64,000 nt of DNA, from positions 1-64,000 of IMG/VR virus record IMGVR_UViG_3300028615_000023; one strand, 5' to 3'. The position numbers and the translations under genes were made by a program. The notes beneath the pieces are model-generated. The model ran no database searches and was not told the origin of the DNA. It was given only the letters and a program-made list of their open reading frames with translations. Positions 2,551-22,781 of the stretch are shown here, in pieces (within the stretch, counting starts at the first letter, position 1; each line of letters opens with the position of its first letter). The DNA is from a virus.

Positions 2551-5361
2551 CTAAGACGCATCGGCATAATACTCCGGTGGCTGTTCGAAATCCTTAGTTA
2601 AGAACTTATATAATGCCTTTGGCCGCTTCATATACTTCTTAACAAAGTCATCATCAACTTCTATGTTACTGCCCATATGCCTACCTATCTTTCCTTCAAC
2701 CTCGAACTTAATAACACGCAAGCTCTTAGTTGTTATAGACTCCATGATATTCTTTACCTTCACATAGAATTCCATAGCTTGTTCAACCGGCACTTCGTAA
2801 GACAATGAGTCATGCACCTCCTGTATTATCTTGACTTGTTTATATTCACTCTTAATAAGTTCATACGTTCGACGTGCAGCAAGATAAGTAACATCTGAAG
2901 CAGTTCCCTGGATAGGAGTATTTCTAGCTTGTCGCAATGCATGAGATTGTATCTTCCTATCACTAGAGTATACGTCTTCTAAGTAACGCCTACGACCGAA
3001 ATCAGTTTCAGCGTAACCGTTATCCTCTGCGAACTCCTCAAACGTATCGAACATATTTTCGAGTCCAGTGAACTGACTTAGTATTTCATCCATGCATCGG
3101 GCCGACTCATCAAAAGGTATCTCAGCTTCCTTTGATATCTTATCAGGACCGCCACCGAATAAGATAACCCACCAAACAGTCTTAGCAATCGAACGATACT
3201 CTTTATACTTCTTATACAATTTATTAAGCTTCGGGTCCTTATCTCTCTCTTCCTTACTACTTTTGTAAACATTCATCATCTGATCATAAGGAATGCTGTA
3301 AGCTATGCATGCCGCATAACAGTGAATATCCTTACCATCACGAATGATCTCTAATAACAATCTATCGCCGGACTTAATTGCAGCTATCCTAACTTCCAGG
3401 TTCCTATAGTCAAACATCAAAAGCACATTACCGTCTTCTGCTTTTACCATGCGCTTAATAATAGGAACACGCGCCCAATTCTGAGGATTAGGGTCGTTAC
3501 CTGCACGTCTAAATGTTTCAGTTCCATTCAATAAATAAGTTGAATGGATACGACCATCCAGCCCGATGTACTTTTGCGCACCTCTAGCATATCGAGATAG
3601 ATAGGTTGAATCCTTTTTGAAAGATTGCAATCTCTTAACAAAATCCCTCTGCTTATCTGTTAGTGGAGCATAAGAAACTAAACCACTGAGAAAGTCAGAG
3701 TTAGTAGTTAAGTTTCCTTTGTCTGTTGTGAACTCGATTGAAGTTAAAAACGTCGGCCATTTAAGTCTTCGAGAAACACCATGAACATCAGCATATCTAT
3801 TGAATGGATATCTCTTACGCTCTCTTGCTGGATCAAAGTCAATAAGCATGCGTAAAGCGTTACCAGCTTGAGGTGCAGAATTAAAATTAACTACTCCAGT
3901 CTTCTTACTAGCTACTGCCTCCTTAATATGTTTAGGTAACAGCTTGCTTAATTCCTTCGAACCTTCCTCCATTCTCCGTTCATAATACTTAACAAGACTT
4001 TTTCTATACTCCTCATCAACCGCATAGCCATTGGATTCCATCTCACAATAGGGATAGACACCGGGCATAACGTGTTTACCAAAGAACTTAAATAGCTTTC
4101 GCTCCTGAAGTGTAGGCTTAAGTTTAAAGAACGTTCGATATGTACATACAGAATCAGCAGCACCATAACGACCCACTACATCAAGATCAATCTTAGTATA
4201 ATCTCTGTTCTTCGGCTCTATACCTCGCTCATTAAACCACTTCTCTAGCTGAAGTTCATAACCTCCCATGTTTACGAGCCATGCCAAATGCTTAAGAGAA
4301 TGAATCCCCTTAGCACTATCAATATTATGAGACATAAGCATCGTATCAGCATAGGGATTTAATAACTCAACACCTAGAACGCCAACAAACCAGTTACGTT
4401 CAAACTGAAAATGATGTGATATCTTCCTAAGCTTAATTTTTGCAAACCATCTTAAGAAGTCTATAACCTCGGCATACGTGTCTGGATCATCCTCCCATAC
4501 TTGCGGGTCTTGATGATCTACCGGAAGGTAAACACCATAATCGTTACTCCACGAAAAAGAAATCCCACCTATTAACGGAGGAACTTCTTTCATCTTCTGA
4601 GGTATCTGAGCTTTATCACTGCTAGGGTCGGAGTTAGTTTCAAAGTCGTGAGCTATATGAGTATCTGAAGGAAGGGATTGAATTGTCTTTTTAAGTTTTA
4701 GGAATTGCTTTCGAGTCTTAATAACTTCTAATTCTATGTCTGCAAGCGGATCAACATTAGTATTTTCGTTCTTTATGAATTCACCAAAGTTAAGAAACGC
4801 TTGCTCTATGCGCTTCATAGCTTCGGGCTGTCTTAGTCCGTAGGCTGGATGGATAATAGGCATATAAAACCTGCCATCTCTTTGAATGATGCTACCGTTA
4901 TCCTTTGTTATGCTAGCACCTCTACCGATAACAGATTTCTCAGCAGGACCACCAAACAGCACAACATATTTAGGATTAACTGCTTCGATTTCCTCATCTA
5001 AATAAGGCTTACACGTCTTAACTTCTGCGTCTGTTATCTTACCATCATACCCCTTAAAGCATTTTGTCGCATTAGTAATATATACGTCCTTACGTTCTAT
5101 TCCTATCTTATCTAGAAGCTTCTGAACTACTTTACCGGAAGGCGCATTAGGGTTGAACAGTATTCCAGTTTGATCTTCAATATCTCCAGGTCCTTCACCT
5201 ATGATCATTAACCTAGGTTTATACGGACCCCTCCCCCATATTGGCCGTTGCGCTGTCTTATGTAACGGACATAACGTACAGTTCTTAACAACGTTGATAC
5301 CTTCCGGCCTTATCCTTTTCTTTCTAAGTGCTTCTCTTGTTTCCCTGAATTGTGATTTCAT
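2551..5361 (-). CDS. DNA polymerase I family replicative polymerase with N-terminal uracil-DNA glycosylase
   Basis: A 936-aa fusion. Residues 1 to about 195 look like an iron-sulphur family 4/5 uracil-DNA glycosylase: C28, C31, C101 and C117 fit cluster ligands, with motifs GEGPGD (55-60) and HPAY (171-174). Residues from about 230 form a 3'-5' exonuclease with DFE (D239, E241), a HHFQFERN motif and the YxxxD-type motif GRYGAADS. The C-terminal half is a family A polymerase: motif A DYRNLEVR near 650, motif B KTVWWVILFGGG near 727 and motif C EVHDS near 850, where the usual VHDE has Ser instead of Glu. It should copy phage DNA with proofreading; the glycosylase may remove uracil as synthesis proceeds. 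It is almost certainly the replicative polymerase, as no other is present. Confidence 0.93.
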   Translation of the reverse strand: MKSQFRETREALRKKRIRPEGINVVKNCTLCPLHKTAQRPIWGRGPYKPRLMIIGEGPGDIEDQTGILFNPNAPSGKVVQKLLDKIGIERKDVYITNATKCFKGYDGKITDAEVKTCKPYLDEEIEAVNPKYVVLFGGPAEKSVIGRGASITKDNGSIIQRDGRFYMPIIHPAYGLRQPEAMKRIEQAFLNFGEFIKNENTNVDPLADIELEVIKTRKQFLKLKKTIQSLPSDTHIAHDFETNSDPSSDKAQIPQKMKEVPPLIGGISFSWSNDYGVYLPVDHQDPQVWEDDPDTYAEVIDFLRWFAKIKLRKISHHFQFERNWFVGVLGVELLNPYADTMLMSHNIDSAKGIHSLKHLAWLVNMGGYELQLEKWFNERGIEPKNRDYTKIDLDVVGRYGAADSVCTYRTFFKLKPTLQERKLFKFFGKHVMPGVYPYCEMESNGYAVDEEYRKSLVKYYERRMEEGSKELSKLLPKHIKEAVASKKTGVVNFNSAPQAGNALRMLIDFDPARERKRYPFNRYADVHGVSRRLKWPTFLTSIEFTTDKGNLTTNSDFLSGLVSYAPLTDKQRDFVKRLQSFKKDSTYLSRYARGAQKYIGLDGRIHSTYLLNGTETFRRAGNDPNPQNWARVPIIKRMVKAEDGNVLLMFDYRNLEVRIAAIKSGDRLLLEIIRDGKDIHCYAACIAYSIPYDQMMNVYKSSKEERDKDPKLNKLYKKYKEYRSIAKTVWWVILFGGGPDKISKEAEIPFDESARCMDEILSQFTGLENMFDTFEEFAEDNGYAETDFGRRRYLEDVYSSDRKIQSHALRQARNTPIQGTASDVTYLAARRTYELIKSEYKQVKIIQEVHDSLSYEVPVEQAMEFYVKVKNIMESITTKSLRVIKFEVEGKIGRHMGSNIEVDDDFVKKYMKRPKALYKFLTKDFEQPPEYYADAS

Positions 5362-5722: not shown

Positions 5723-6520
5723 TCATAATTTGAACCACTCTGAAAGAATACGAATGCAAAGCTCATTAATAGCATCTGTGTTTGGATACTTTGACAAGTT
5801 ACTATCAAAGGCAGCATCTTCGATTTCTAGAAAAAGCTTATCAGCATGATTCTTTACTTCCACTAAGGACCATTCCCCATTCTTAATTGCAATCAACTCA
5901 TCAGCATCATGCTCTCTGAATACGTTTAACTTCTTATCTCTTAGAAACTCAATGCCCATACGGAGCAATCGAATCAGGTGAGAAGCGTTCTTAGTATCAT
6001 AACCAAACTTACGGACTAGTTCCTTGCGCTTCTCCCCCATATAACCTTTGAACTCAGTCCGTTCCATCTTCTTAAGTTGATTGTAAGCATAACCCAAGAT
6101 TGCTTGATAGCCGCTCATGCTAATGAATAGATCACGATTGTTAATAAGCTCCTGACCTAATGGATGAACAATCAAATAATGTTCATCTCTCAACCACAGC
6201 AAGCTCATAACGTTTGGATTGAATCCAATGGCCAACCTTACGAACTTAAGAAACTCGTACGTTACTGCGTCCCATTCATCAACGAACTTTTCATATTGAT
6301 CAAACCTAATGCCTGGAAAGTATCTCGTCGAAAAGTAATTGCCGATATCACCGATAGCCACACCTAACAAATCTTTATCATCAATCGAGTTCGGATCATC
6401 ATTAGGACGGTAAGTCCCATGAGATATAGAACCGCGATATCCTAACAAGATAGTTTGATCATGAATGATACCACGCTCTTTCAACATATTAATAGTTTCA
6501 TCCTTATTCATTATCATCAT
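5723..6520 (-). CDS. RlaP-type nucleotidyltransferase (polymerase beta superfamily)
   Basis: A 265-aa protein with the nucleotidyltransferase core LLGYRGSISHGTY near residue 20, followed by DDKDLLGV near residue 48. The GSxSHGT and DxD-like features match the RNA repair pathway DNA polymerase beta family (RlaP, PF10127). Members are predicted to add nucleotides to RNA ends, and some occur in phages, where they may repair tRNAs cleaved by host defence; that role is inferred for this copy. The rest is helical. The ribosome site GGAG precedes a cluster of ATGs (6520, 6517, 6511); 6511 (MNKDETINM) has 10-base spacing, so the exact start is uncertain. It overlaps the upstream gene. Confidence 0.75.
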   Translation of the reverse strand: MMIMNKDETINMLKERGIIHDQTILLGYRGSISHGTYRPNDDPNSIDDKDLLGVAIGDIGNYFSTRYFPGIRFDQYEKFVDEWDAVTYEFLKFVRLAIGFNPNVMSLLWLRDEHYLIVHPLGQELINNRDLFISMSGYQAILGYAYNQLKKMERTEFKGYMGEKRKELVRKFGYDTKNASHLIRLLRMGIEFLRDKKLNVFREHDADELIAIKNGEWSLVEVKNHADKLFLEIEDAAFDSNLSKYPNTDAINELCIRILSEWFKL

Positions 6521-7171: not shown

Positions 7172-7801
7172 CTATTCAAAATCTGTTTGACGCCATACAC
7201 CATCAGTCTTGATCAGATAACGACCGTATGAACTCGTTACTGAATACTTAACAAGATTTTCCTCCATTATTAACAGATATTTTCTTATGGTTGATCGAGG
7301 TAGATCCAGAGCTATCTGAATCGTATTTTCCTCGTCAGTAATCTTATTACTAATCCACCTATAGGTAGCTGCTTTGATCAGATATATAGCACGTTCAGGA
7401 CCTACCAACATTACTGCTATGTTGATTATTAAGTCCATAGTTTCGACTGCACGGTAATCGCTGAAGATAGCTGAGGAAGGCATGCCGATGAGTTCTTCAG
7501 CATTGACAGTAGTAGAATTAGCTCCACGCTTCTTATTAGTTAACGCTGAACGAAGTCGATATATTACAGAATTTTCTCCAGTCCTGTATGCTAACATACA
7601 TGCTTGATTATAACTCTTGTGACGGTAGCGGTAGAGGGCAATCCACATATTAACAGCTACATCATTCTCCAAATCTTCGGTAGGTATATGAAGTATGTAC
7701 GCTGATCTAGCTATGTACGAATGCAATAGCTTCATACAATAAATTAATATTTCTTCTCGTTTCTTTCTTACTAATATCTTTGGCCTCTTCTTTTTTACCA
7801 T
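7172..7801 (-). CDS. Probable phage-encoded sigma factor of the sigma-70 superfamily
   Basis: A 209-aa protein with the layout of a small sigma factor. A helical region 2-like part (about residues 15 to 90) contains IPTEDLENDVAVNMWIALYR, resembling the polymerase-binding and -10 recognition helices. A C-terminal helix-turn-helix (about 150 to 185) reads IQIALDLPRSTIRKYLLIME, resembling region 4. The middle looks like a linker. If correct, it would redirect host RNA polymerase to phage promoters such as the conserved-spacer class. The match is by pattern only; a general DNA-binding regulator is the alternative. The start overlaps the end of the upstream Cys-rich gene. Confidence 0.6.
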   Translation of the reverse strand: MVKKKRPKILVRKKREEILIYCMKLLHSYIARSAYILHIPTEDLENDVAVNMWIALYRYRHKSYNQACMLAYRTGENSVIYRLRSALTNKKRGANSTTVNAEELIGMPSSAIFSDYRAVETMDLIINIAVMLVGPERAIYLIKAATYRWISNKITDEENTIQIALDLPRSTIRKYLLIMEENLVKYSVTSSYGRYLIKTDGVWRQTDFE

Positions 7802-8241
7802 ACAATATCATCTCCGGACCTTGCTCGTTTTCTTCGTTCAGTAATTTTTCGTTTACTATGAAACGTTCTTGTTAACTTACGCCACTGAGGACATTTACAA
7901 CCACCGACGTTACACTTAGTTGCTATTGAAGCAGTAGAACCAACATGGTCAGCATATACATGACTGCAATCTGAACAAGGGAAATCTCCATAAGGATTTA
8001 TGTACATATCACAATTGCATGTTACGCAATCGACATATAAATTACCTTCGAATATATGAGTATGTCCACACGTAACACACAATGGTCCGATTTCTCTTCT
8101 TAAGTTTCTTACCTTTCTAACTCTTTTTTTCATCCTAGGTGTATCCTTTTTAAGTTCTCTTATTAACTTAAATTCGTTCTCTAGGCTAAACTCTAGAGGG
8201 TAGGAAAGCTTAGCCATATCAGTAACATACACAATTGGCAT
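7795..8241 (-). CDS. 148-aa protein with multiple zinc-binding Cys/His clusters
   Basis: Basic N-terminal half (TPRMKKRVRKVRNLRREI) followed by repeated metal-binding motifs: CVTCGHTH, CVTCNC, CSDCSH and CNVGGCKC between about residues 54 and 118, then a basic tail. The cysteines occur in evenly spaced pairs, suggesting two zinc sites. It overlaps the sigma-like gene by 7 bases, so the two could act together, for example as an anti-sigma or accessory factor; this is only a contextual guess. Confidence 0.65.
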   Translation of the reverse strand: MPIVYVTDMAKLSYPLEFSLENEFKLIRELKKDTPRMKKRVRKVRNLRREIGPLCVTCGHTHIFEGNLYVDCVTCNCDMYINPYGDFPCSDCSHVYADHVGSTASIATKCNVGGCKCPQWRKLTRTFHSKRKITERRKRARSGDDIVW

Positions 8242-8996: not shown

Positions 8997-9458
8997 CTAA
9001 AAATAGTAATTAACTTGACTCCGTGTGATCTTATCTACAGCAAGTGTTCTTAGTTTTTCAGTAATAGAGTAATCACTCGTTGCTACATTCTTTTCACCTG
9101 GAATAAGTTTGAACCCGTAAACGGTTCTTAGCCTTCTCCAAATAAGTTTACGATCTTCTCTAGAAATACAATATTCTGGTTTCTTAAAACCAGAATTCTC
9201 TAGTTTTCTGAATGCGCCTTTGAGTGCAAGCTTTCTCTGAATGATATGATTAGGACCGAACATATTGAATGCTTTTACAGTATGCGTTGCTATAGCCAAT
9301 AGATTTTTAGTTTCTTGCTCCTCAATTCTAACGCTAGCTGTAGTAAATAGACAAGGTTCATTAACTTTACGGCCCCACGGTGGAACAAACAAACTCTCGC
9401 CGGTATCATAGTTGAAGCCAATAACAGCAACTCTCTTGTTATCAATCTTGATTCTCAT
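8997..9458 (-). CDS. Unknown 153-aa protein
   Basis: I place the start at 9458 (MRIKIDNKRVAVIGF), which follows AAGGAGACTAATA; longer in-frame starts overlap the upstream gene and lack a ribosome site. The protein has a beta-rich N-terminus and a basic C-terminal half (RKLIWRRLRTVYGF). No family recognised. Its start overlaps the 3' end of the 48-aa zinc-ribbon gene by 17 bases. Confidence 0.65.
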   Translation of the reverse strand: MRIKIDNKRVAVIGFNYDTGESLFVPPWGRKVNEPCLFTTASVRIEEQETKNLLAIATHTVKAFNMFGPNHIIQRKLALKGAFRKLENSGFKKPEYCISREDRKLIWRRLRTVYGFKLIPGEKNVATSDYSITEKLRTLAVDKITRSQVNYYF

Positions 9459-9588
9459 TATTAGTCTCCTTGACTTTATAAACACCAATCTTATGACTAC
9501 TACATACGCCACAGAACTTAGGTTTCTTATACCACGTATGTGAGTACCTATTGTTACATTCAAAACAATAGACTAAATATGTCTTCAT
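9442..9588 (-). CDS. 48-aa zinc-ribbon protein
   Basis: Starts MKTYLVYCFECNNRYSHTW behind GAGGAGGTTGA. Two CxxC pairs, CFEC at about 8 to 11 and CGVC at about 27 to 30, form a minimal zinc ribbon, followed by a polar tail. Function unknown; one of many tiny Cys-rich proteins in this genome. Confidence 0.65.
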   Translation of the reverse strand: MKTYLVYCFECNNRYSHTWYKKPKFCGVCSSHKIGVYKVKETNNENQD

Positions 9589-9597
9589 TCAACCTCC

Positions 9598-9870
9598 TCA
9601 CTTGTAAAGATCAAACTCGCGACACATACATTTACTTTCGTCTCCCATACAGCATTCCATCCTTTTCATTCCTGATTCACGTTGATCGAACTCAGTACGA
9701 CTATCACACATAACAAGTGTCTCCAGATTTATTCCCTTCTTAAGTAACTGTTTCTTAATTTCCCCGATAGCCGCATCGGCCTCAGCATCGGTTCCATACT
9801 TAATATCTACAAACACCTTATCATCTTTAGTGCTTAGTACTACTTTCGGCTTCGGCCTTGTCTTGTGCAT
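9598..9870 (-). CDS. Unknown 90-aa protein with Cys-rich C-terminus
   Basis: The N-terminal 60 residues look alpha/beta (VVLSTKDDKVFVDIKYGTDAEADAAI). The C-terminus holds MECCMGDESKCMC, a possible metal site. The second of two tandem ATGs (9870) has the better spacing from GGGAG. It overlaps the upstream membrane protein gene by more than 40 bases in another frame, unusually long for this genome. Function unknown. Confidence 0.6.
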   Translation of the reverse strand: MHKTRPKPKVVLSTKDDKVFVDIKYGTDAEADAAIGEIKKQLLKKGINLETLVMCDSRTEFDQRESGMKRMECCMGDESKCMCREFDLYK

Positions 9871-10282
9871 CATGTACTCCCTTCATAGCTCTGAGTATTT
9901 CCTGCCTCTTCTTAAATTCCTCTATACGTTTCTTTGATTCATCAGCCGAAGTATATAAGAAATTTGTTATGAGATAGGATGTTGCTCCTCCTATATAAAG
10001 ATCAAAGAAAGAAATCAATGTTATGCATTGAGCAACTTGTATCAAGGCTAATTTATGTTTATCAAGAGATCCATTAATAAGTGATATTAATAAACCTATA
10101 CCTACAAGAACGCTTGCAAGTAAAGTTATTATTGTCCATACAATGTAAAGTCCCATAACATTAGGCAGTGAGTTTAAAATCTCCATGCTAAATATATATA
10201 GGGCATAAGATGTACAGAAGCTTACCTGTACCATAGTTATAAAAAGGTATAATAATACCTTAAGCAGAAACAGTATTGTCAT
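9827..10282 (-). CDS. Multi-pass membrane protein
   Basis: 151 aa with three to four hydrophobic segments (about residues 3 to 30, 42 to 70 and 82 to 110) followed by a charged helical tail (KKRIEEFKKRQEILRAMKGV) likely to be cytoplasmic. No family recognised. Topology would fit a holin, superinfection-exclusion or envelope-remodelling protein, but there is no endolysin nearby and I do not assign one. Confidence 0.6.
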   Translation of the reverse strand: MTILFLLKVLLYLFITMVQVSFCTSYALYIFSMEILNSLPNVMGLYIVWTIITLLASVLVGIGLLISLINGSLDKHKLALIQVAQCITLISFFDLYIGGATSYLITNFLYTSADESKKRIEEFKKRQEILRAMKGVHDAQDKAEAESSTKH

Positions 10283-10285
10283 TTA

Positions 10286-10876
10286 TTAAATCTCCTCTCT
10301 CAACAGTGCTTTAATCTCTGATCTAACAAACATTAACAATGACCCTAACATATCTGCTCCAGCGAATCCCCAATACATATCATAAGGACTGTTTTCATGT
10401 AGTATTGAATCACCAGTGGCTAACAATCTCTTTTTTAAGTGAGCATTCTGTTCAAATTTACATGAGAGTCCAACATACATTATAGAAGGCTTAATAGTAT
10501 TCCATTCTGATCTTATCTTTACCTCCTTACCAACTTTCTTAGCGTCACCTGGAGTATGACAATTCAATATCAATTCTCTATCCGTTTCATCTTCACACTT
10601 CATATACTGATAGTAATGTTCAACAGTACGGAAGGTAATATTATTAAACTCGAATGGCGATACCCAAAAGTTAGATAGGAATTGAAAATGAATATTAGTG
10701 CTACCCCAAAAGAATATATGCCGCTGGCCTTTGTGATCAACCTCAAATGGTTTATGTCTCATCTTATGATACGAATATCTATACCAAACTCGTTTACAGG
10801 GACACTTAATATTATATTTAATTACACCGCTAAGCTCATGACCACACAAACAATTGAAAGTAATTCTCGTATCCAT
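10286..10876 (-). CDS. NADAR (YbiA-like) domain protein with N-terminal zinc ribbon
   Basis: 196 aa. The first 30 residues carry two CxC pairs (C9, C11, C25, C27). From about residue 54 the NADAR signature is clear: FFWGSTNIHFQFLSNFW, SPFEF, TFRTVEHYYQYMK (E86 in the conserved EH), a TPGDAKKVGKEVKIRSEW segment, CKFEQNAHLKKRLLATGD, and SPYDMYWGF with a final LLMFVRSEI. NADAR proteins act on ADP-ribose-linked substrates; members have been reported to remove ADP-ribose from guanine in DNA, reversing DarT-type toxins. In a phage this suggests counter-defence. That role is inferred. Confidence 0.9.
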   Translation of the reverse strand: MDTRITFNCLCGHELSGVIKYNIKCPCKRVWYRYSYHKMRHKPFEVDHKGQRHIFFWGSTNIHFQFLSNFWVSPFEFNNITFRTVEHYYQYMKCEDETDRELILNCHTPGDAKKVGKEVKIRSEWNTIKPSIMYVGLSCKFEQNAHLKKRLLATGDSILHENSPYDMYWGFAGADMLGSLLMFVRSEIKALLREEI

Positions 10877-11788: not shown

Positions 11789-11887
11789 GACGCCTAAATT
11801 TGCTTTCTAAGGCCACTTTACACAAAAAAGGCCGGTTACCCTACATAGGACCGGCCTAGATGCGTTCTGAAAGCAATTATAGGCGTC
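11789..11887. repeat. 19-bp inverted repeat enclosing a terminator
   Basis: Left arm 11789-11807 and right arm 11869-11887 are inverted copies identical at 17 of 19 positions (GAAAGCAAwTwTAGGCGTC). The terminator hairpin 11824-11857 lies between them. The right arm overlaps the last codon of the AAA+ ATPase gene. The nested structure could form a large hairpin in RNA or a cruciform in DNA. Confidence 0.7.
11824..11857 (-). terminator. Rho-independent terminator after the AAA+ operon
   Basis: Minus strand AGGCCGGT, a 13-base loop and ACCGGCCT, followed by a run of T. A perfect 8-bp GC-rich stem directly after the ATPase gene. Confidence 0.85.
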
Positions 11888-13749
11888 TAATCTTGCTCAC
11901 CACTACGTGCCCTAGGTGCTCGAAAACCCATAGGCTCGCGAGCTTTTCTCTTCTTAGCTTGCTTAATAAGTGTATCACGATCACCTTGCATGGATTCAGG
12001 AAGAGTTGAAAGATCGTTAACCTCCATCATAGCAAGCCCCGTCATGAACTTAATATCATCGGGTTGAACAGTCGGCATAATAACATCCTGAGCAAACCGG
12101 ATATTATCAACAGTCGGTGTCTTATCTCCTGATAGAATTCTAACTTTCCTAACAATCTCCTCCATATCAGCCGGGACCCAATTGTCAGTGGAAGCAATTA
12201 GTGAATCCAAAGCTTCACGATATTTAACTTTCTTCCACAAAGAATCATCTGCTACACCGTGCTTTTTGAAGAGTACCTTAAAAATCTCTTCTCTAGCATC
12301 GGGAGCTGGAGGTAGAATAGCGATCTTCTTATCAAACCTACCTGCACGTTTCAACGCAGCATCCATAAGATCCGGTCTGTTAGTAGCTCCGAAAACTACA
12401 ACATCACCTCTATGACTATCATCACCTAAGAATTCAAGAATCCTTCCTGATACACGGCTAGACGTATCTCCTCCACTTCCACCGTCATGAAATCCACCAC
12501 GCCCAGGCAGAGCTTGATCAATCTCATCAATTAGCAAAATACAACCGATGCTAACCGCAAGGTTGAAAAGCTTTTCTAGGTTTCTCTCTGAGCTTCCTAG
12601 ATACATATTAAAGATGCGGCTCATTGATACGCGCAACATCAACATATTAGCTTCATATGCCAATGCCTCAGCGATCATACTCTTACCAACCCCCGGAGGG
12701 CCAGCCATAAGAATACCCATCGCACACCTAGACTTATCGTTATTAAGAAGCGGCTCAACTACATTCTCCCAAAAGATGCGCTTCATATAATTCATGCCAC
12801 CAACACGCTCACCCCAGCCCATAGTAGGCTCAACGATAGACGCTACATCATTAAAGCTTTCCTTAATAATAACGTCTTTACGCTGCTTGATATACTTCCG
12901 TGTTAGTTGATTAGTAGCATGCGCATGCAATAGCAAATCTTCAGTTTGTTTGAAGTTGAGTCCAGCCGTACTGCGAGCAATATCATTCTCATCCATGTTA
13001 GCAACGAAGCTATCATTTTTTGAGTAACCTTGCTCAATCTGAAAATCCCGCCACGTCTTAATAAAGATAGCACGGTCTTCAGTGCTAGGATAATGAACCT
13101 CCATCTTCTCAATACCGTTTTCAGGTTCTAGAAGTGCAGGATGCAACACGGTCCTATCTTGAGCAAGGAAGATAATAAGATGTTCATCTCTCCTAATATC
13201 ACTATCAATTGCCCACCTAAGAATGCGAACGATATTAGCATCAATATCATTCAATACTCCCCATCGAGGAGAGCTTAGATAAGCTTCTGAGAAATCGAAA
13301 ATGAACATGCATTTAACGATTTCTTCTTCTCGTTCTGTACTAGTTTCTGTCAACCTACCTTTTAGCAATCGCTCGACAGTGCGTAGAGCCATGCTAGGAG
13401 AGGTAGGGATAGGACCACTCGATTGCTGCTGTTGATTAGCAGCCACAGCCATTAAGTTCTGTTGTGTGTTACGACCTTCCGACGCATTAGAAACTCGAAC
13501 TAGGTTAGCTGCAAGTTCCTTCATGCCTTCTTTTTGATAAGTCCATTCATGCAAATCATACTTAGCAATAAGCTTAAATCTCTTTGCATAGTACTCCATC
13601 AACATATCAGGAAACCGCATCATACACATACCGCCGCCGGTCATAGGCAACTGTTGAAAATCCTGAACATTACCAGTGAATAGAAACTCGTGTGCTACTC
13701 CAGAGTCCCTATAGATATCATTGATCTTATCAATTACAGCGTTGCTCAT
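11887..13749 (-). CDS. Ycf46-like AAA+ ATPase
   Basis: 620 aa from the ATG at 13749 (MSNAVIDKIND), which follows GGGAGAG. The C-terminal half is a complete AAA+ module: Walker A GPPGVGKS near 350, Walker B LLIDEID near 409, and a second region of homology GATNRPDLMDAALKRAGRFD with arginine finger candidates near 455 to 470. The N-terminal half looks like a degenerate ATPase domain (KCMFIFDFSEAYL, HLIIFLAQDRTVLHPALLEP), the layout of Ycf46-type proteins. A Gln-rich linker lies near 115. It ends an operon that also encodes Ycf35-like and DUF2997-like proteins, an association I recall from bacterial genomes. Likely a remodelling motor; substrate unknown. Confidence 0.85.
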   Translation of the reverse strand: MSNAVIDKINDIYRDSGVAHEFLFTGNVQDFQQLPMTGGGMCMMRFPDMLMEYYAKRFKLIAKYDLHEWTYQKEGMKELAANLVRVSNASEGRNTQQNLMAVAANQQQQSSGPIPTSPSMALRTVERLLKGRLTETSTEREEEIVKCMFIFDFSEAYLSSPRWGVLNDIDANIVRILRWAIDSDIRRDEHLIIFLAQDRTVLHPALLEPENGIEKMEVHYPSTEDRAIFIKTWRDFQIEQGYSKNDSFVANMDENDIARSTAGLNFKQTEDLLLHAHATNQLTRKYIKQRKDVIIKESFNDVASIVEPTMGWGERVGGMNYMKRIFWENVVEPLLNNDKSRCAMGILMAGPPGVGKSMIAEALAYEANMLMLRVSMSRIFNMYLGSSERNLEKLFNLAVSIGCILLIDEIDQALPGRGGFHDGGSGGDTSSRVSGRILEFLGDDSHRGDVVVFGATNRPDLMDAALKRAGRFDKKIAILPPAPDAREEIFKVLFKKHGVADDSLWKKVKYREALDSLIASTDNWVPADMEEIVRKVRILSGDKTPTVDNIRFAQDVIMPTVQPDDIKFMTGLAMMEVNDLSTLPESMQGDRDTLIKQAKKRKAREPMGFRAPRARSGEQD

Positions 13750-13753
13750 TTTA

Positions 13754-14701
13754 TTAAACTCTCCCTTCATAGGTTTTCTTAACTTCACCTTTTGACTTAC
13801 TGCCCCTCATATGATGCGGTACAAACACCGTCACATTTGCTAGTCTGCCAAACAACTTATTATCTCCTGTATACGTATGGTAGGATGCACGCACAGAATG
13901 TAAGTTTCTCTCCGCTCCAGACGCATAACTATCGAGCTTCATAACTCTTTGTTTCTTACCGCTACCTAGCTTAACTGCTAGTACATGATAAGCATCATCA
14001 TTCGTAGTACCTAGCCGTTGTAATCTTCTACGTTCTGCTCGATTGCCTTTTAGTATAGCTTCAGATGTAGTAGTCACATTATGTATCTGACTAAGCATGT
14101 ACATTGCACCGATAGCTGGCCTTGTTGCATGATTTAAGCATCCAGCCACTTCAGGAGTTAATGGTACGAAATTAATTTCATCTCCCTTCCTTACACTATT
14201 AACAGAAGAGGTTAGTCCAATAACTCCAGTCCTAGAACCTTGATCATCATCATACATATAAACTTTCCCACCATCGAAACTACTCATGAAAGTATTTATG
14301 TGATCATGATACGGATCGGTTATATCTCTTGGACCATCCTCCTTAGTTATGAATGTAACTTTGTAGAGGATATTAACTACATTCGACACATACTCATTTG
14401 TCCAAACAATACAATATACATTCTTCTCCTTTGTCTCTAACTTATATCTTTCAAAAAGCTTTTCTCTTTCCTCCTCAGTTTTTGCCTTCTTAATAATATC
14501 CAATATACTACGTGGCATAATCTTCACAATTATTGGATAACACCATGCCGTTTCCCTGTATGGCAAGCGCGGATTTCTCCGCGCTTGCTCAGGATTCTCC
14601 TTCATCATTTGAATGTAAGCGTAAATGTCTGGTAAGGCTGGCTCCAAATCGAAGATAGTAAACTCAGGTTCCTTACGTAAAATGTCAACATACTGTAGCA
14701 T
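13754..14701 (-). CDS. Unknown 315-aa partner protein in the AAA+ operon
   Basis: Start at 14701 (MLQYVDILRKEPEF) after AAGGAGTTCAGC; an in-frame ATG at 14725 lacks a site. It looks alpha/beta with a basic segment near 220 (LKGNRAERRRLQRLG) and a positively charged C-terminus. No catalytic motif seen. It lies between the DUF2997-like gene and the ATPase with 4 to 10 base gaps, so it is very likely part of the same complex or pathway. It may be the effector or substrate adaptor of the ATPase; this is inference from context. Confidence 0.65.
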   Translation of the reverse strand: MLQYVDILRKEPEFTIFDLEPALPDIYAYIQMMKENPEQARRNPRLPYRETAWCYPIIVKIMPRSILDIIKKAKTEEEREKLFERYKLETKEKNVYCIVWTNEYVSNVVNILYKVTFITKEDGPRDITDPYHDHINTFMSSFDGGKVYMYDDDQGSRTGVIGLTSSVNSVRKGDEINFVPLTPEVAGCLNHATRPAIGAMYMLSQIHNVTTTSEAILKGNRAERRRLQRLGTTNDDAYHVLAVKLGSGKKQRVMKLDSYASGAERNLHSVRASYHTYTGDNKLFGRLANVTVFVPHHMRGSKSKGEVKKTYEGRV

Positions 14702-18605: not shown

Positions 18606-19172
18606 TCATTCGATAGGAATTTTGTTAATTTTCTGTTCCTCTTTCATCTCCTTAACTTGCTTTTCGAATGCATATTCTCTTCTCCATACGCTATGAAGAT
18701 ACTCTAGGACATGCTTAGTAGAGATAATATGTTCACAATCAACAGTAATTTCTTCTCCTAATTTTATCCGTTCAATAGTGTGCTCATACTCATAATTACA
18801 CTTCCATTCATCGTAGTTTACAGTTGAATAAACAACATATGACTTCCTATGATTATGATTAGAAAGATGACCATAAAAAGCCCGTACCCATTTAGGTTTC
18901 TCAACTGGTTCCGTATTAGTAAACCAAAGATAAAATCCATAACAAGTACAGATTTTAAGAGAATCATCCTCATCCTTAATAGTCTTTACGTCATAATGGC
19001 CGTTACATTTTCCCAAACCTGAATGCTCAGAGATATAGTGACCACAGACACATAGGTTCGGATGGATAGTTACCTTTTCCACGGGCCGATTTCTTATCTC
19101 CTCTAGAATTCTTTCATTCCTATCCTTAATAACTTTTCGCGCCACCCGAAATTGACTATTCTTAATATCCAT
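18606..19172 (-). CDS. Unknown 188-aa protein with CxCGH metal motif
   Basis: Start at 19172 (MDIKNSQFRVARKVI), preceded by AAAAGGAGTGATC; longer in-frame starts run into the terminator region. Metal-site candidates are LCVCGHYISEHSGLGKC and ICTCYGFYLWF. The C-terminal part is helical and charged (FEKQVKEMKEEQKIN). The CxCGHxxxxHxxxxGxC pattern recalls small zinc domains in other phages. Function unknown. Confidence 0.6.
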   Translation of the reverse strand: MDIKNSQFRVARKVIKDRNERILEEIRNRPVEKVTIHPNLCVCGHYISEHSGLGKCNGHYDVKTIKDEDDSLKICTCYGFYLWFTNTEPVEKPKWVRAFYGHLSNHNHRKSYVVYSTVNYDEWKCNYEYEHTIERIKLGEEITVDCEHIISTKHVLEYLHSVWRREYAFEKQVKEMKEEQKINKIPIE

Positions 19173-19239
19173 GATCACTCCTTTTCTATGAACACTAAAT
19201 GTAACCGAAAAATATGATGGCTCGCATAATATCCTCATT

Positions 19240-19280
19240 AAGAAGAAGCCGGGATACCTCAATTAAGAAATACCCCGGCT
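19240..19280 (-). terminator. Rho-independent terminator after the 88-aa gene
   Basis: Minus strand AGCCGGGGTA and TATCCCGGCT form a 10-bp stem (one G-T pair) with a 14-base loop, followed by TCTTCTT. Separates the small-gene cluster from the 18606-19172 gene. Confidence 0.65.
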
Positions 19281-19875: not shown

Positions 19876-20331
19876 TTATCCTCCTAGCTTCTTACCAGTA
19901 ATGAAAAATCCGTTTCGTTCTATACCACCGTCTGGATAGATAATAACAAGTGGATTTCCTGTTTTCCTAGCCATTCTAATAGTGGACCACGTACCGGACC
20001 TTACTTCTTCCGTCATAGTATTAGGTGTGCCAATGTATGCATGACACTCCTTAACTATGACTTTATTACGTTCATGATATGGACGACGTGGATAGATAAC
20101 ATCCGATTTAGTATCAGCAGCAAACGCAAGATTCTGAGGACGATGAGCAAACGTTGTATAGTTTCCTAGTGAGGTAGCTATACGGAAACCTTGTTCATCT
20201 GCCCCTATACAATCGCCGTGGTGAAACTCAATATCCTCACGCCATATTGAAATACCAACTAGCAACATACGAAGAGCCGCTTGCTGTTTACTAGTCATAC
20301 CTCTTCTCGAACCAGTGAATCCTACTTTCAT
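19876..20331 (-). CDS. SLOG-superfamily protein (YpsA/DprA-like Rossmann fold)
   Basis: 151 aa. The start MKVGFTGSRRGMTSKQQAAL contains the GxTGSR loop and the middle has FHHGDCIGADEQGF, both hallmarks of YspA/cpYpsA-type SLOG proteins; AHRPQNLAFAADTKSD and YHERNKVIV follow in the usual order. SLOG proteins are predicted to bind nucleotides or NAD-derived molecules, and some sense or process ADP-ribose signals in conflict systems. In this phage it co-occurs with a NADAR protein. It lies 6 bases from its neighbour in the small-gene cluster. Confidence 0.85.
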   Translation of the reverse strand: MKVGFTGSRRGMTSKQQAALRMLLVGISIWREDIEFHHGDCIGADEQGFRIATSLGNYTTFAHRPQNLAFAADTKSDVIYPRRPYHERNKVIVKECHAYIGTPNTMTEEVRSGTWSTIRMARKTGNPLVIIYPDGGIERNGFFITGKKLGG

Positions 20332-21255: not shown

Positions 21256-21462
21256 TTATTCGAAAACAGCATTGAGATTCGTATCATCTAAGTAATCATA
21301 ACCATCAAGCTTACAGTCACAAGATTTCATTGGATTGTTATCAATTAAAACATAACAACCGTAAGCAAGATGATATTTAATAGGATGCTTGCAGTTAGGG
21401 CATGGTTCCTCTGCCCTTACAAACTCAAACAAATTATCTTGCTGTTCTTTGTTCATAAACAT
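21256..21462 (-). CDS. 68-aa zinc-ribbon protein
   Basis: PCPNCKHPIKYHLAYGC followed by SCDCKLDGYDYL gives a CxxC/CxC metal site. The ribosome site is a start-associated repeat (21468-21488) with CGGGGAAAAA instead of CGGGGAGG. Two ATGs (MFM) are close together; the first is used here. Confidence 0.6.
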   Translation of the reverse strand: MFMNKEQQDNLFEFVRAEEPCPNCKHPIKYHLAYGCYVLIDNNPMKSCDCKLDGYDYLDDTNLNAVFE

Positions 21463-21873: not shown

Positions 21874-22152
21874 TTAAACCTCCAATGCCTGTTCGAACAA
21901 TCGTTGAACATTAGCAAAGTCTTCATGCATACCTTCGATAACTGCAACTTCCTCATCCTGAAATAGAACAGTAGCATGCATGCCATCGAGAGCGTCGAGC
22001 ATCATAGTGAACTCGTTATCAGAGTTAGGAGTTAGTTCACTGTAAGGAACACCTCGAAACTCAACAACGAAACCGCGACCATCCCTAACTAGCAAGACGC
22101 CATCTTCCCCCTGATTAGGTGCGCTAAGGTGAAAAGCTCTGGTCCTTCTCAT
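21874..22152 (-). CDS. Unknown 92-aa protein
   Basis: MRRTRAFHLSAPNQGEDGVL; alternates short strands and helices, ending in an acidic helix (MHEDFANVQRLFEQALEV). Overlaps the end of the upstream zinc-ribbon gene by 29 bases. Function unknown. Confidence 0.6.
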   Translation of the reverse strand: MRRTRAFHLSAPNQGEDGVLLVRDGRGFVVEFRGVPYSELTPNSDNEFTMMLDALDGMHATVLFQDEEVAVIEGMHEDFANVQRLFEQALEV

Positions 22153-22375
22153 TATTATCTACCACCTTCCTAAGTGTCCCATTGGGCAGAAGAACTATAC
22201 TAAGTTCCTCATAGTCATCAGGACTGTTCTTAAATTGTCTCTTAAGATAATCTTGCCCACCATCAACAGCTACTCCACAACTGCACTGACGGAAATCATG
22301 GCGGTGCAGTGAAAGCAGTACCACTTTACAGGTATTACACTTGATCATATTTATTATTATCTTTTCCTCTGGCAT
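22124..22375 (-). CDS. 83-aa zinc-ribbon protein of a widespread phage family
   Basis: Start at 22375 (MPEEKIIINMIKCNTC) after AAAGGAGAGCTAAC. The pattern IKCNTCKVVLLS, RHDFRQCSCG, then AVDGGQDYLKR matches a small phage family I recall (possibly DUF7695) with CxxC...HDFxxCxCG...VDGG. Metal binding is nearly certain; function unknown. Confidence 0.7.
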   Translation of the reverse strand: MPEEKIIINMIKCNTCKVVLLSLHRHDFRQCSCGVAVDGGQDYLKRQFKNSPDDYEELSIVLLPNGTLRKVVDNNEKDQSFSP

Positions 22376-22376
22376 G

Positions 22377-22781
22377 TTAGCTCTCCTTTGTAGCTTTGAC
22401 TCTTGCGTAGTCTCCTGAACCTGAGAAGTACCAGCCGTAATATATACGACCATTGATAGCTTTGAACCTAATGGACCTACGCTCAGCATTGAATACATGA
22501 AACGGAGAACCTAGCACACAATGATGAGCTAAGATATCGCCGGTCCAAGTAGTTACTTTCCGTTCCTTTTCATTTACATAACAGAAGTAGCGGTCAGGTT
22601 TATCATGTATGAATTCATAAACTTCAATAGCTGACCACTCATCGTTAGTAATTCTTGCATTGGCTGGCACTTCATCAGCATAGTAAGGACCACTATTCAG
22701 CGTATGCCAGTCTTGAAACCGCTGCCAACGATCACATAATTCAATGTACCGTGCCTTTGATATCTTATGAATTGCTAACAT
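22377..22781 (-). CDS. Unknown 134-aa beta-rich protein
   Basis: MLAIHKISKARYIELCDRWQ with many aromatic residues and a C-terminal INGRIYYGWYFSGSG. The start uses a start-associated repeat (CTATCGGGGGAATC then ATG). No family recognised. Confidence 0.6.
   Translation of the reverse strand: MLAIHKISKARYIELCDRWQRFQDWHTLNSGPYYADEVPANARITNDEWSAIEVYEFIHDKPDRYFCYVNEKERKVTTWTGDILAHHCVLGSPFHVFNAERRSIRFKAINGRIYYGWYFSGSGDYARVKATKES

What the first reader, a model, noticed from the sequence alone, without database searches (positions are those of the whole stretch)
10286..10876. NADAR protein with zinc ribbon: possible reversal of DNA ADP-ribosylation
The NADAR core is clear, and the family includes enzymes that remove ADP-ribose from DNA or act on ADP-ribose conjugates. 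Phages need such activity against DarTG-type defences. The extra four-Cys zinc ribbon may target it to DNA. It is coupled to an unknown 291-aa protein.
Basis: partly seen in the sequence, partly recalled or inferred. Interest (0 to 1): 0.7.

Follow-up and report, generated by a model that had tools for sequence, protein, structure and literature searches.

The report
Phage NADAR enzyme with zinc-ribbon-like tail
A phage gene encodes a NADAR enzyme with an intact active site, of the kind that removes ADP-ribose from guanine bases and probably helps the virus undo a bacterial attack; the enzyme is a familiar type, but it carries a short cysteine-rich extension at its front end that about 200 relatives lack.

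Summary
Window 10286-10876(-) encodes 196 aa: residues 55-188 are a NADAR domain (Pfam E 3e-31) and residues 9-27 hold C9-x-C11…C25-x-C27. The frame starts in a TAATG overlap with the 291-aa gene, behind GAGG. The AlphaFold2 core (pLDDT ~98) matches ADP-ribose-bound Phytophthora NADAR 8BAU (Z 19.5) and E. coli YbiA (Z 18.8), and DarT1-linked NADAR 8BAT less well (Z 10.1). Catalytic and ADP-ribose-contact positions are kept (E86, K93, E161, W125, D166, W169; two Arg contacts are Lys). It is a YbiA/Phytophthora-type NADAR, not a DarT1-linked antitoxin, and the record has no DarT or macrodomain match. Published YbiA and T4 NADARs cleave guanosine-ADP-ribose in vitro but do not rescue E. coli from DarT1, so the DarTG claim is only partly supported. 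NADARs are common in phages (842 of 50,697 records match). The unusual part is the N-terminal extension: none of 206 compared sequences has it; two other NADARs carry C-terminal zinc domains (one DUF7695) on different branches. Zinc binding and targeting are inferred. The 291-aa partner has no detectable relatives. Most likely role: an orphan phage guanosine-ADP-ribosyl hydrolase used as counter-defence.

The parts
10286..10876 (-). NADAR protein, 196 aa
   Evidence: Pfam NADAR 3.3e-31, NCBIfam TIGR02464 over cut-off, AlphaFold2 core pLDDT ~98, PDB 8bau Z 19.5 / 2b3w Z 18.8
10721..10876 (-). N-terminal extension, residues 1-52, with C9-x-C11 and C25-x-C27 (putative zinc ribbon)
   Evidence: sequence; low-confidence beta-hairpin E4-8/E14-18; no Pfam match; absent from all other NADAR loci compared
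10310..10714 (-). NADAR catalytic domain, residues 55-189; catalytic E86, K93, E161; contacts K117, W125, K129, D166, W169
   Evidence: residue roles from PMC11543638
10876..11751 (-). 291-aa protein of unknown function, upstream in the same operon; its stop overlaps the NADAR start (TAATG)
   Evidence: no relatives in phages or IMG/VR; no Pfam; single-sequence model pLDDT 44
9827..10282 (-). next gene downstream, 151 aa, strongly hydrophobic N-terminal two thirds (likely membrane protein)
   Evidence: starts 3 bases after the NADAR stop; only weak family matches
11824..11857 (-). terminator-like hairpin plus T6 between the AAA+ ATPase gene and the 291-aa gene; suggests that 291-aa plus NADAR begin a separate transcript
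   Evidence: sequence; fold -16.9 kcal/mol, z -3.3

Best explanation
The gene encodes an orphan phage NADAR of the YbiA/Phytophthora type: a hydrolase that cuts the N-glycosidic bond between ADP-ribose and guanine (probably on nucleic acid), made during infection to undo ADP-ribosylation imposed by a host defence ADP-ribosyltransferase. The N-terminal C-x-C...C-x-C module most likely folds as a zinc ribbon that helps the enzyme reach its target, nucleic acid or a protein on it. Shown here: NADAR family and predicted fold, intact active site, operon placement, no DarT in the record. Inferred from the family: guanosine-ADP-ribose hydrolysis. Inferred only: counter-defence role, zinc binding, targeting.
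For: NADAR by Pfam, NCBIfam, PHROGs and PDB; the model matches 8bau (with ADP-ribose) at Z 19.5 over 150 residues. Catalytic residues E86, K93, E161 and contacts are present, and E86 and K93 are invariant in 207 aligned sequences. K113, aligned with Phytophthora K75 and hence E. coli C7 K115 (the lysine needed in cells, not for catalysis), is present, whereas YbiA has Ala. All NADARs tested in PMC11125620 and PMC11833690 remove ADP-ribose from guanosine in DNA or RNA. DarT and macrodomain models find nothing in the record, so it does not look like half of a DarTG pair. [quoted passage not shown] text not available).
Against: YbiA and T4 NADAR do not protect E. coli from DarT1 despite in vitro activity. 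The family also includes riboflavin-intermediate N-glycosidase activity, and a viral survey argues that many phage NADARs act on small ADP-ribose derivatives. The ribbon is low confidence in the model (pLDDT 45-56), unmatched in Pfam, untested for conservation because no relative has it, and the knuckle pattern alone is weak. The host is unknown, so no matching host toxin could be sought.
Confidence: 0.5

Rival explanations
1. It degrades a soluble ADP-ribose-derived defence signal or toxic by-product (cyclic ADP-ribose variants, ADP-ribose-1''-phosphate) rather than nucleic-acid adducts.
For: The viral NAD-ADP-ribose survey favours low-molecular-weight substrates for phage NADARs. The same record has a SLOG/DprA-like protein at 19876-20331 (phrog_289; matches mycobacteriophage 'DprA-like' genes), a partner class that the survey reports as co-occurring with NADAR.
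Against: No direct biochemical demonstration for NADARs on such signals was found in the papers read; the SLOG-like gene is 9 kb away and its family assignment is tentative; a nucleic-acid-type zinc ribbon would not be needed.
Confidence: 0.25
2. It is a YbiA-like N-glycosidase of riboflavin or other nucleotide intermediates (metabolic damage control), with no role in conflict.
For: Best NCBIfam model is TIGR02464, riboflavin biosynthesis intermediates N-glycosidase, over its cut-off. Some phage NADARs lie beside GTP- or deazaguanine-related genes (L004; L096).
Against: No riboflavin or deazaguanine gene was seen in this window (family scans of selected ORFs and reading of the ORF list; not exhaustive). 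The model name reflects one characterised member, and YbiA itself also cleaves guanosine-ADP-ribose.
Confidence: 0.12
3. It is the antitoxin half of a toxin-antitoxin pair with the 291-aa neighbour as an ADP-ribosyltransferase (as in YarT-YbiA).
For: Translational coupling TAATG with the 291-aa gene; YarT-YbiA pairs exist.
Against: The 291-aa protein has no ART family match, DarT is not found, and its largely helical low-confidence model does not look like an ART (weak evidence).
Confidence: 0.05
4. The N-terminal extension is not a functional zinc ribbon, only unconserved leader sequence with chance cysteines (this can be true together with any of the enzyme roles above).
For: Two-knuckle pairing arises in 5% of shuffles given four Cys; low pLDDT; no family match.
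Against: Knuckle context C-x-C-G-H and C-P-C-K-x-x-W is ribbon-like; the model places hairpin strands beside the first knuckle; two unrelated NADARs also carry zinc domains, so such fusions recur.
Confidence: 0.25

Closest known systems
Phytophthora nicotianae NADAR (PDB 8bau)
   Same: Fold (Z 19.5, 150 residues, 30% identity), catalytic E43/K50/E125 and ADP-ribose contacts W89, D130, W133; hydrolyses guanine-ADP-ribose (PMC11543638)
   Different: Contacts R79 and R93 are Lys in the phage protein; Phytophthora has another fold extension instead of a Cys module
E. coli YbiA (PDB 2b3w) / TIGR02464
   Same: Fold (Z 18.8, 34% identity), glutamate type, over the NCBIfam cut-off
   Different: YbiA has no N-terminal Cys module and has Ala at the position of K113
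DarT1-linked NADAR antitoxins (DarG1; G. lovleyi 8bat, E. coli C7)
   Same: NADAR fold, catalytic Glu and Lys, lysine at the C7 K115 position
   Different: Catalytic Asp replaced by Glu161; much weaker structural match (Z 10.1, 11% identity); no DarT in the record
Phage stand-alone NADARs (phrog_1017; 842 phage records match) and orphan phage antitoxins against DarTG1 (Nat Commun 16:1598)
   Same: Orphan NADAR in a tailed phage
   Different: Cys-rich N-terminal extension not seen in the 206 sequences compared; relation to the published orphan antitoxins not tested
NADAR fused to C-terminal zinc domains (L033, DUF7695; L168, zinc-ribbon-like)
   Same: NADAR plus a small Cys-rich domain
   Different: Other end of the protein, other domain type, other branches of the tree

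Membership tests
NADAR superfamily (PF08719) | Profile match over the gathering score | tested here: met
   109 bits against 35.1
NADAR superfamily (PF08719) | Conserved catalytic Glu and Lys (Pn E43, K50) | tested here: met
   E86 and K93, invariant in 207 aligned rows
NADAR superfamily (PF08719) | NADAR fold | tested here: met
   predicted model: 8bau Z 19.5, 2b3w Z 18.8
YbiA-type subfamily | Glutamate (not Asp or His) in the last beta strand | tested here: met
   E161 aligned with Pn E125
YbiA-type subfamily | No fold extension ('naked' YbiA domain) | tested here: not met
   52-residue N-terminal extension; so a YbiA-type active site, not a plain YbiA
DarT1-linked NADAR (DarG1) | DarT1 gene next to it | tested here: not met
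   PF14487 DarT not found in the record; the record may be incomplete, but both neighbours of the gene are present and neither matches
DarT1-linked NADAR (DarG1) | Catalytic Asp (C7 D171) | tested here: not met
   Glu161 instead
T4 gp30.3 phage NADAR (PF08010) | Match to the Phage_30_3 family | tested here: not met
   13 bits against a cut-off of 36
Guanosine ADP-ribosyl hydrolase | Removes ADP-ribose from guanosine in DNA or RNA | not testable with these tools
   needs an enzyme assay
Zinc ribbon | Two paired Cys knuckles on beta hairpins binding zinc | tested here: inconclusive
   Cys pattern present, model low confidence, no family match

The most novel reading that the evidence does not exclude
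The N-terminal ribbon is a specificity module that directs a YbiA-type NADAR to a particular nucleic acid or complex (for example replicating phage DNA or a host RNA), and phages have attached different small zinc modules to NADARs several times independently for this purpose, which would explain why bare NADARs are active in vitro but fail as antitoxins in cells.
Probability: 0.15. Interest if true: 0.6.

Novelty: new variant of a known kind. Interest (0 to 1): 0.33.

Why it matters
It is still open why NADARs that all cleave guanosine-ADP-ribose in vitro differ in protecting cells (PMC11125620). Natural fusions of NADAR with small zinc modules, at either end, give directly testable constructs: the same catalytic core with and without its module. 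If the module sets the target, it would show one way phages tune counter-defence enzymes.

Tried and rejected
Close relatives of the full protein in IMG/VR: none. The match of L015 to residues 5-190 and of L089 to 10-189 looked like ribbon-bearing homologues but was spurious upstream alignment: neither has the four-Cys module. Phage-collection hits starting at residue 24-29 (H1, H2) also have ordinary starts. Ribbon alone against phages and PDB: only chance-level hits. Relatives of the 291-aa, AAA+ and 323-aa neighbours that would show a conserved operon: none close, so gene-order evidence is absent. DarT and macrodomain partners in the record: none. DUF7695 enrichment in NADAR-bearing viral records: 2 of 50 against 8 of 50,697 phage records by another method; not comparable, so not claimed.

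Full report
What is there. The ORF at 10286-10876(-) is exactly as described, 196 aa. The window is part of a 64,553-base virus record of a tailed phage: tape measure, head protease, DnaB-like helicase, primase and single-strand binding protein matches, and a uracil-DNA-glycosylase/DNA polymerase A fusion. The likely genes lie on the minus strand. Residues 55-188 are a NADAR domain by Pfam (3.3e-31), NCBIfam TIGR02464 (101 bits, cut-off 73.7), PHROGs and PDB sequence search.

Start and operon. The NADAR ATG overlaps the stop of the 291-aa gene by one base (TAATG) and has GAGG about seven bases upstream. The alternative start Met39, which would remove the Cys module, has no such site. The next gene downstream begins three bases after the NADAR stop. 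Between the AAA+ gene and the 291-aa gene lies a hairpin followed by six T on the minus strand (-16.9 kcal/mol, z -3.3), so 291-aa plus NADAR plausibly start their own transcript. The scanner did not list this hairpin; read by eye its loop exceeds or interrupts the scanner's loop limit of 8. Coupling to the 291-aa protein is thus real at the level of translation, but the 291-aa protein has no relatives in phages, IMG/VR or Pfam, and its single-sequence model is unusable (pLDDT 44), so no function can be read from it.

Active site. PMC11543638 gives Phytophthora NADAR E43, E125 and K50 and contacts R79, W89, R93, D130, W133. By the alignment these are E86, E161, K93, K117, W125, K129, D166, W169. 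In 207 aligned sequences E86 and K93 are invariant, W169 is kept in 206, D166 in 204, W125 in 203, E161 in 202; Lys at 129 is the usual residue (187) and Lys at 117 is one of several alternatives to Arg. The active site is intact. E161 places it with the glutamate type (YbiA, Phytophthora) and not with DarT1-linked NADARs (Asp) or the histidine type described for phage NADARs. The predicted model agrees: 8bau Z 19.5, 2b3w Z 18.8, 8bat 10.1. In the tree the target falls in a loose group with three phage sequences, an Elusimicrobiota sequence and the Phytophthora enzyme (support 90; long branches, few columns).

What it does. All NADARs assayed in PMC11125620 and PMC11833690 remove ADP-ribose from guanosine in DNA or RNA, and those tested on thymidine were inactive. 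Guanosine-ADP-ribose hydrolysis is therefore the likely activity. But YbiA and T4 gp30.3, active in vitro, did not rescue E. coli from DarT1, so the physiological substrate cannot be assigned from the domain. One detail favours a cell-active enzyme: K113 aligns with the lysine (Phytophthora K75, E. coli C7 K115) required in cells but not for catalysis, and YbiA has Ala there; however 149 of 207 sequences have Lys, so it is not diagnostic. The record has no DarT or macrodomain match, making this an orphan enzyme, the situation named in the title of a 2025 study of phage enzymes that neutralise DarTG1 (reference seen; the text was not available, and I recall from memory, unchecked, that those enzymes are NADARs). 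Rival substrates are soluble ADP-ribose derivatives, favoured for phage NADARs by the survey in PMC9503650, and riboflavin intermediates.

The Cys module. C9-L-C11-G-H and C25-P-C27-K-x-x-W look like zinc knuckles, but the evidence is thin: chance pairing 5% given four Cys, model pLDDT 45-56 with a hairpin at the first knuckle, no family or convincing PDB match. I compared 206 other NADAR sequences (204 from viral, phage and prokaryote loci, plus YbiA and Phytophthora): none has an N-terminal module of this kind. Two others have C-terminal zinc domains: L033, DUF7695 at 1.2e-16, and L168, a Spirochaetales MAG protein with a ribbon-like tail. They lie on other branches. So zinc modules were joined to NADARs more than once, which makes a function for this one more plausible without showing it. 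The same DUF7695 domain is a stand-alone gene in this window (22193-22363; 49% identical over 57 aa to the L033 tail).

How common. 842 of 50,697 phage records have a match to the query, so a phage NADAR by itself is ordinary. The library holds no paper describing a zinc ribbon-NADAR fusion under the terms searched, which is weak evidence of novelty because most subscription papers are missing. Records very near the window's own genome may also be hidden from the searches.

Verdict. Observation confirmed; interpretation partly supported; a new architecture of a known phage enzyme class. Interest is moderate: the enzyme is familiar, and the unusual part rests on one sequence.

Noticed in passing
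window 22124-22498 (-): Stand-alone DUF7695 zinc domain (PF24749, E 1.7e-19); the same domain is fused to the C-terminus of a NADAR in viral locus L033, a possible functional link between DUF7695 and NADAR.
   Followed up: partly
window 19876-20331 (-): SLOG/DprA-like protein (phrog_289 E 5e-10; about 35% identical to mycobacteriophage DprA-like genes), a class reported to co-occur with NADAR in viruses.
   Followed up: partly
window 2551-5361 (-): Uracil-DNA glycosylase fused to a 3'-5' exonuclease and family A DNA polymerase, 936 aa; about 27% identical to SPO1-type phage polymerases over 94% of its length.
   Followed up: partly
L096 1129-2976: Gene just upstream of the closest NADAR relative is a radical-SAM protein (QueE-like by eye) interrupted by an intein/Hint insert; the gene after the NADAR overlaps it by one base and is very Cys-rich.
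   Followed up: partly
window 7795-8241, 9442-9588, 18606-19262, 21256-21462 (-): Several small proteins with paired Cys motifs, so zinc-ribbon-like modules seem frequent in this phage.
   Followed up: no
window 5723-6520 (-): Nucleotidyltransferase of the RlaP type (RNA repair pathway DNA polymerase beta family; phrog_388 E 1.6e-44), 4 kb from the NADAR.
   Followed up: no
window 11887-13788 (-): 633-aa AAA+ ATPase whose AAA region resembles IetA-type defence ATPases (PADLOC E 2e-23, probably generic AAA similarity); the 323-aa protein gene upstream of it has no relatives found in phages.
   Followed up: partly
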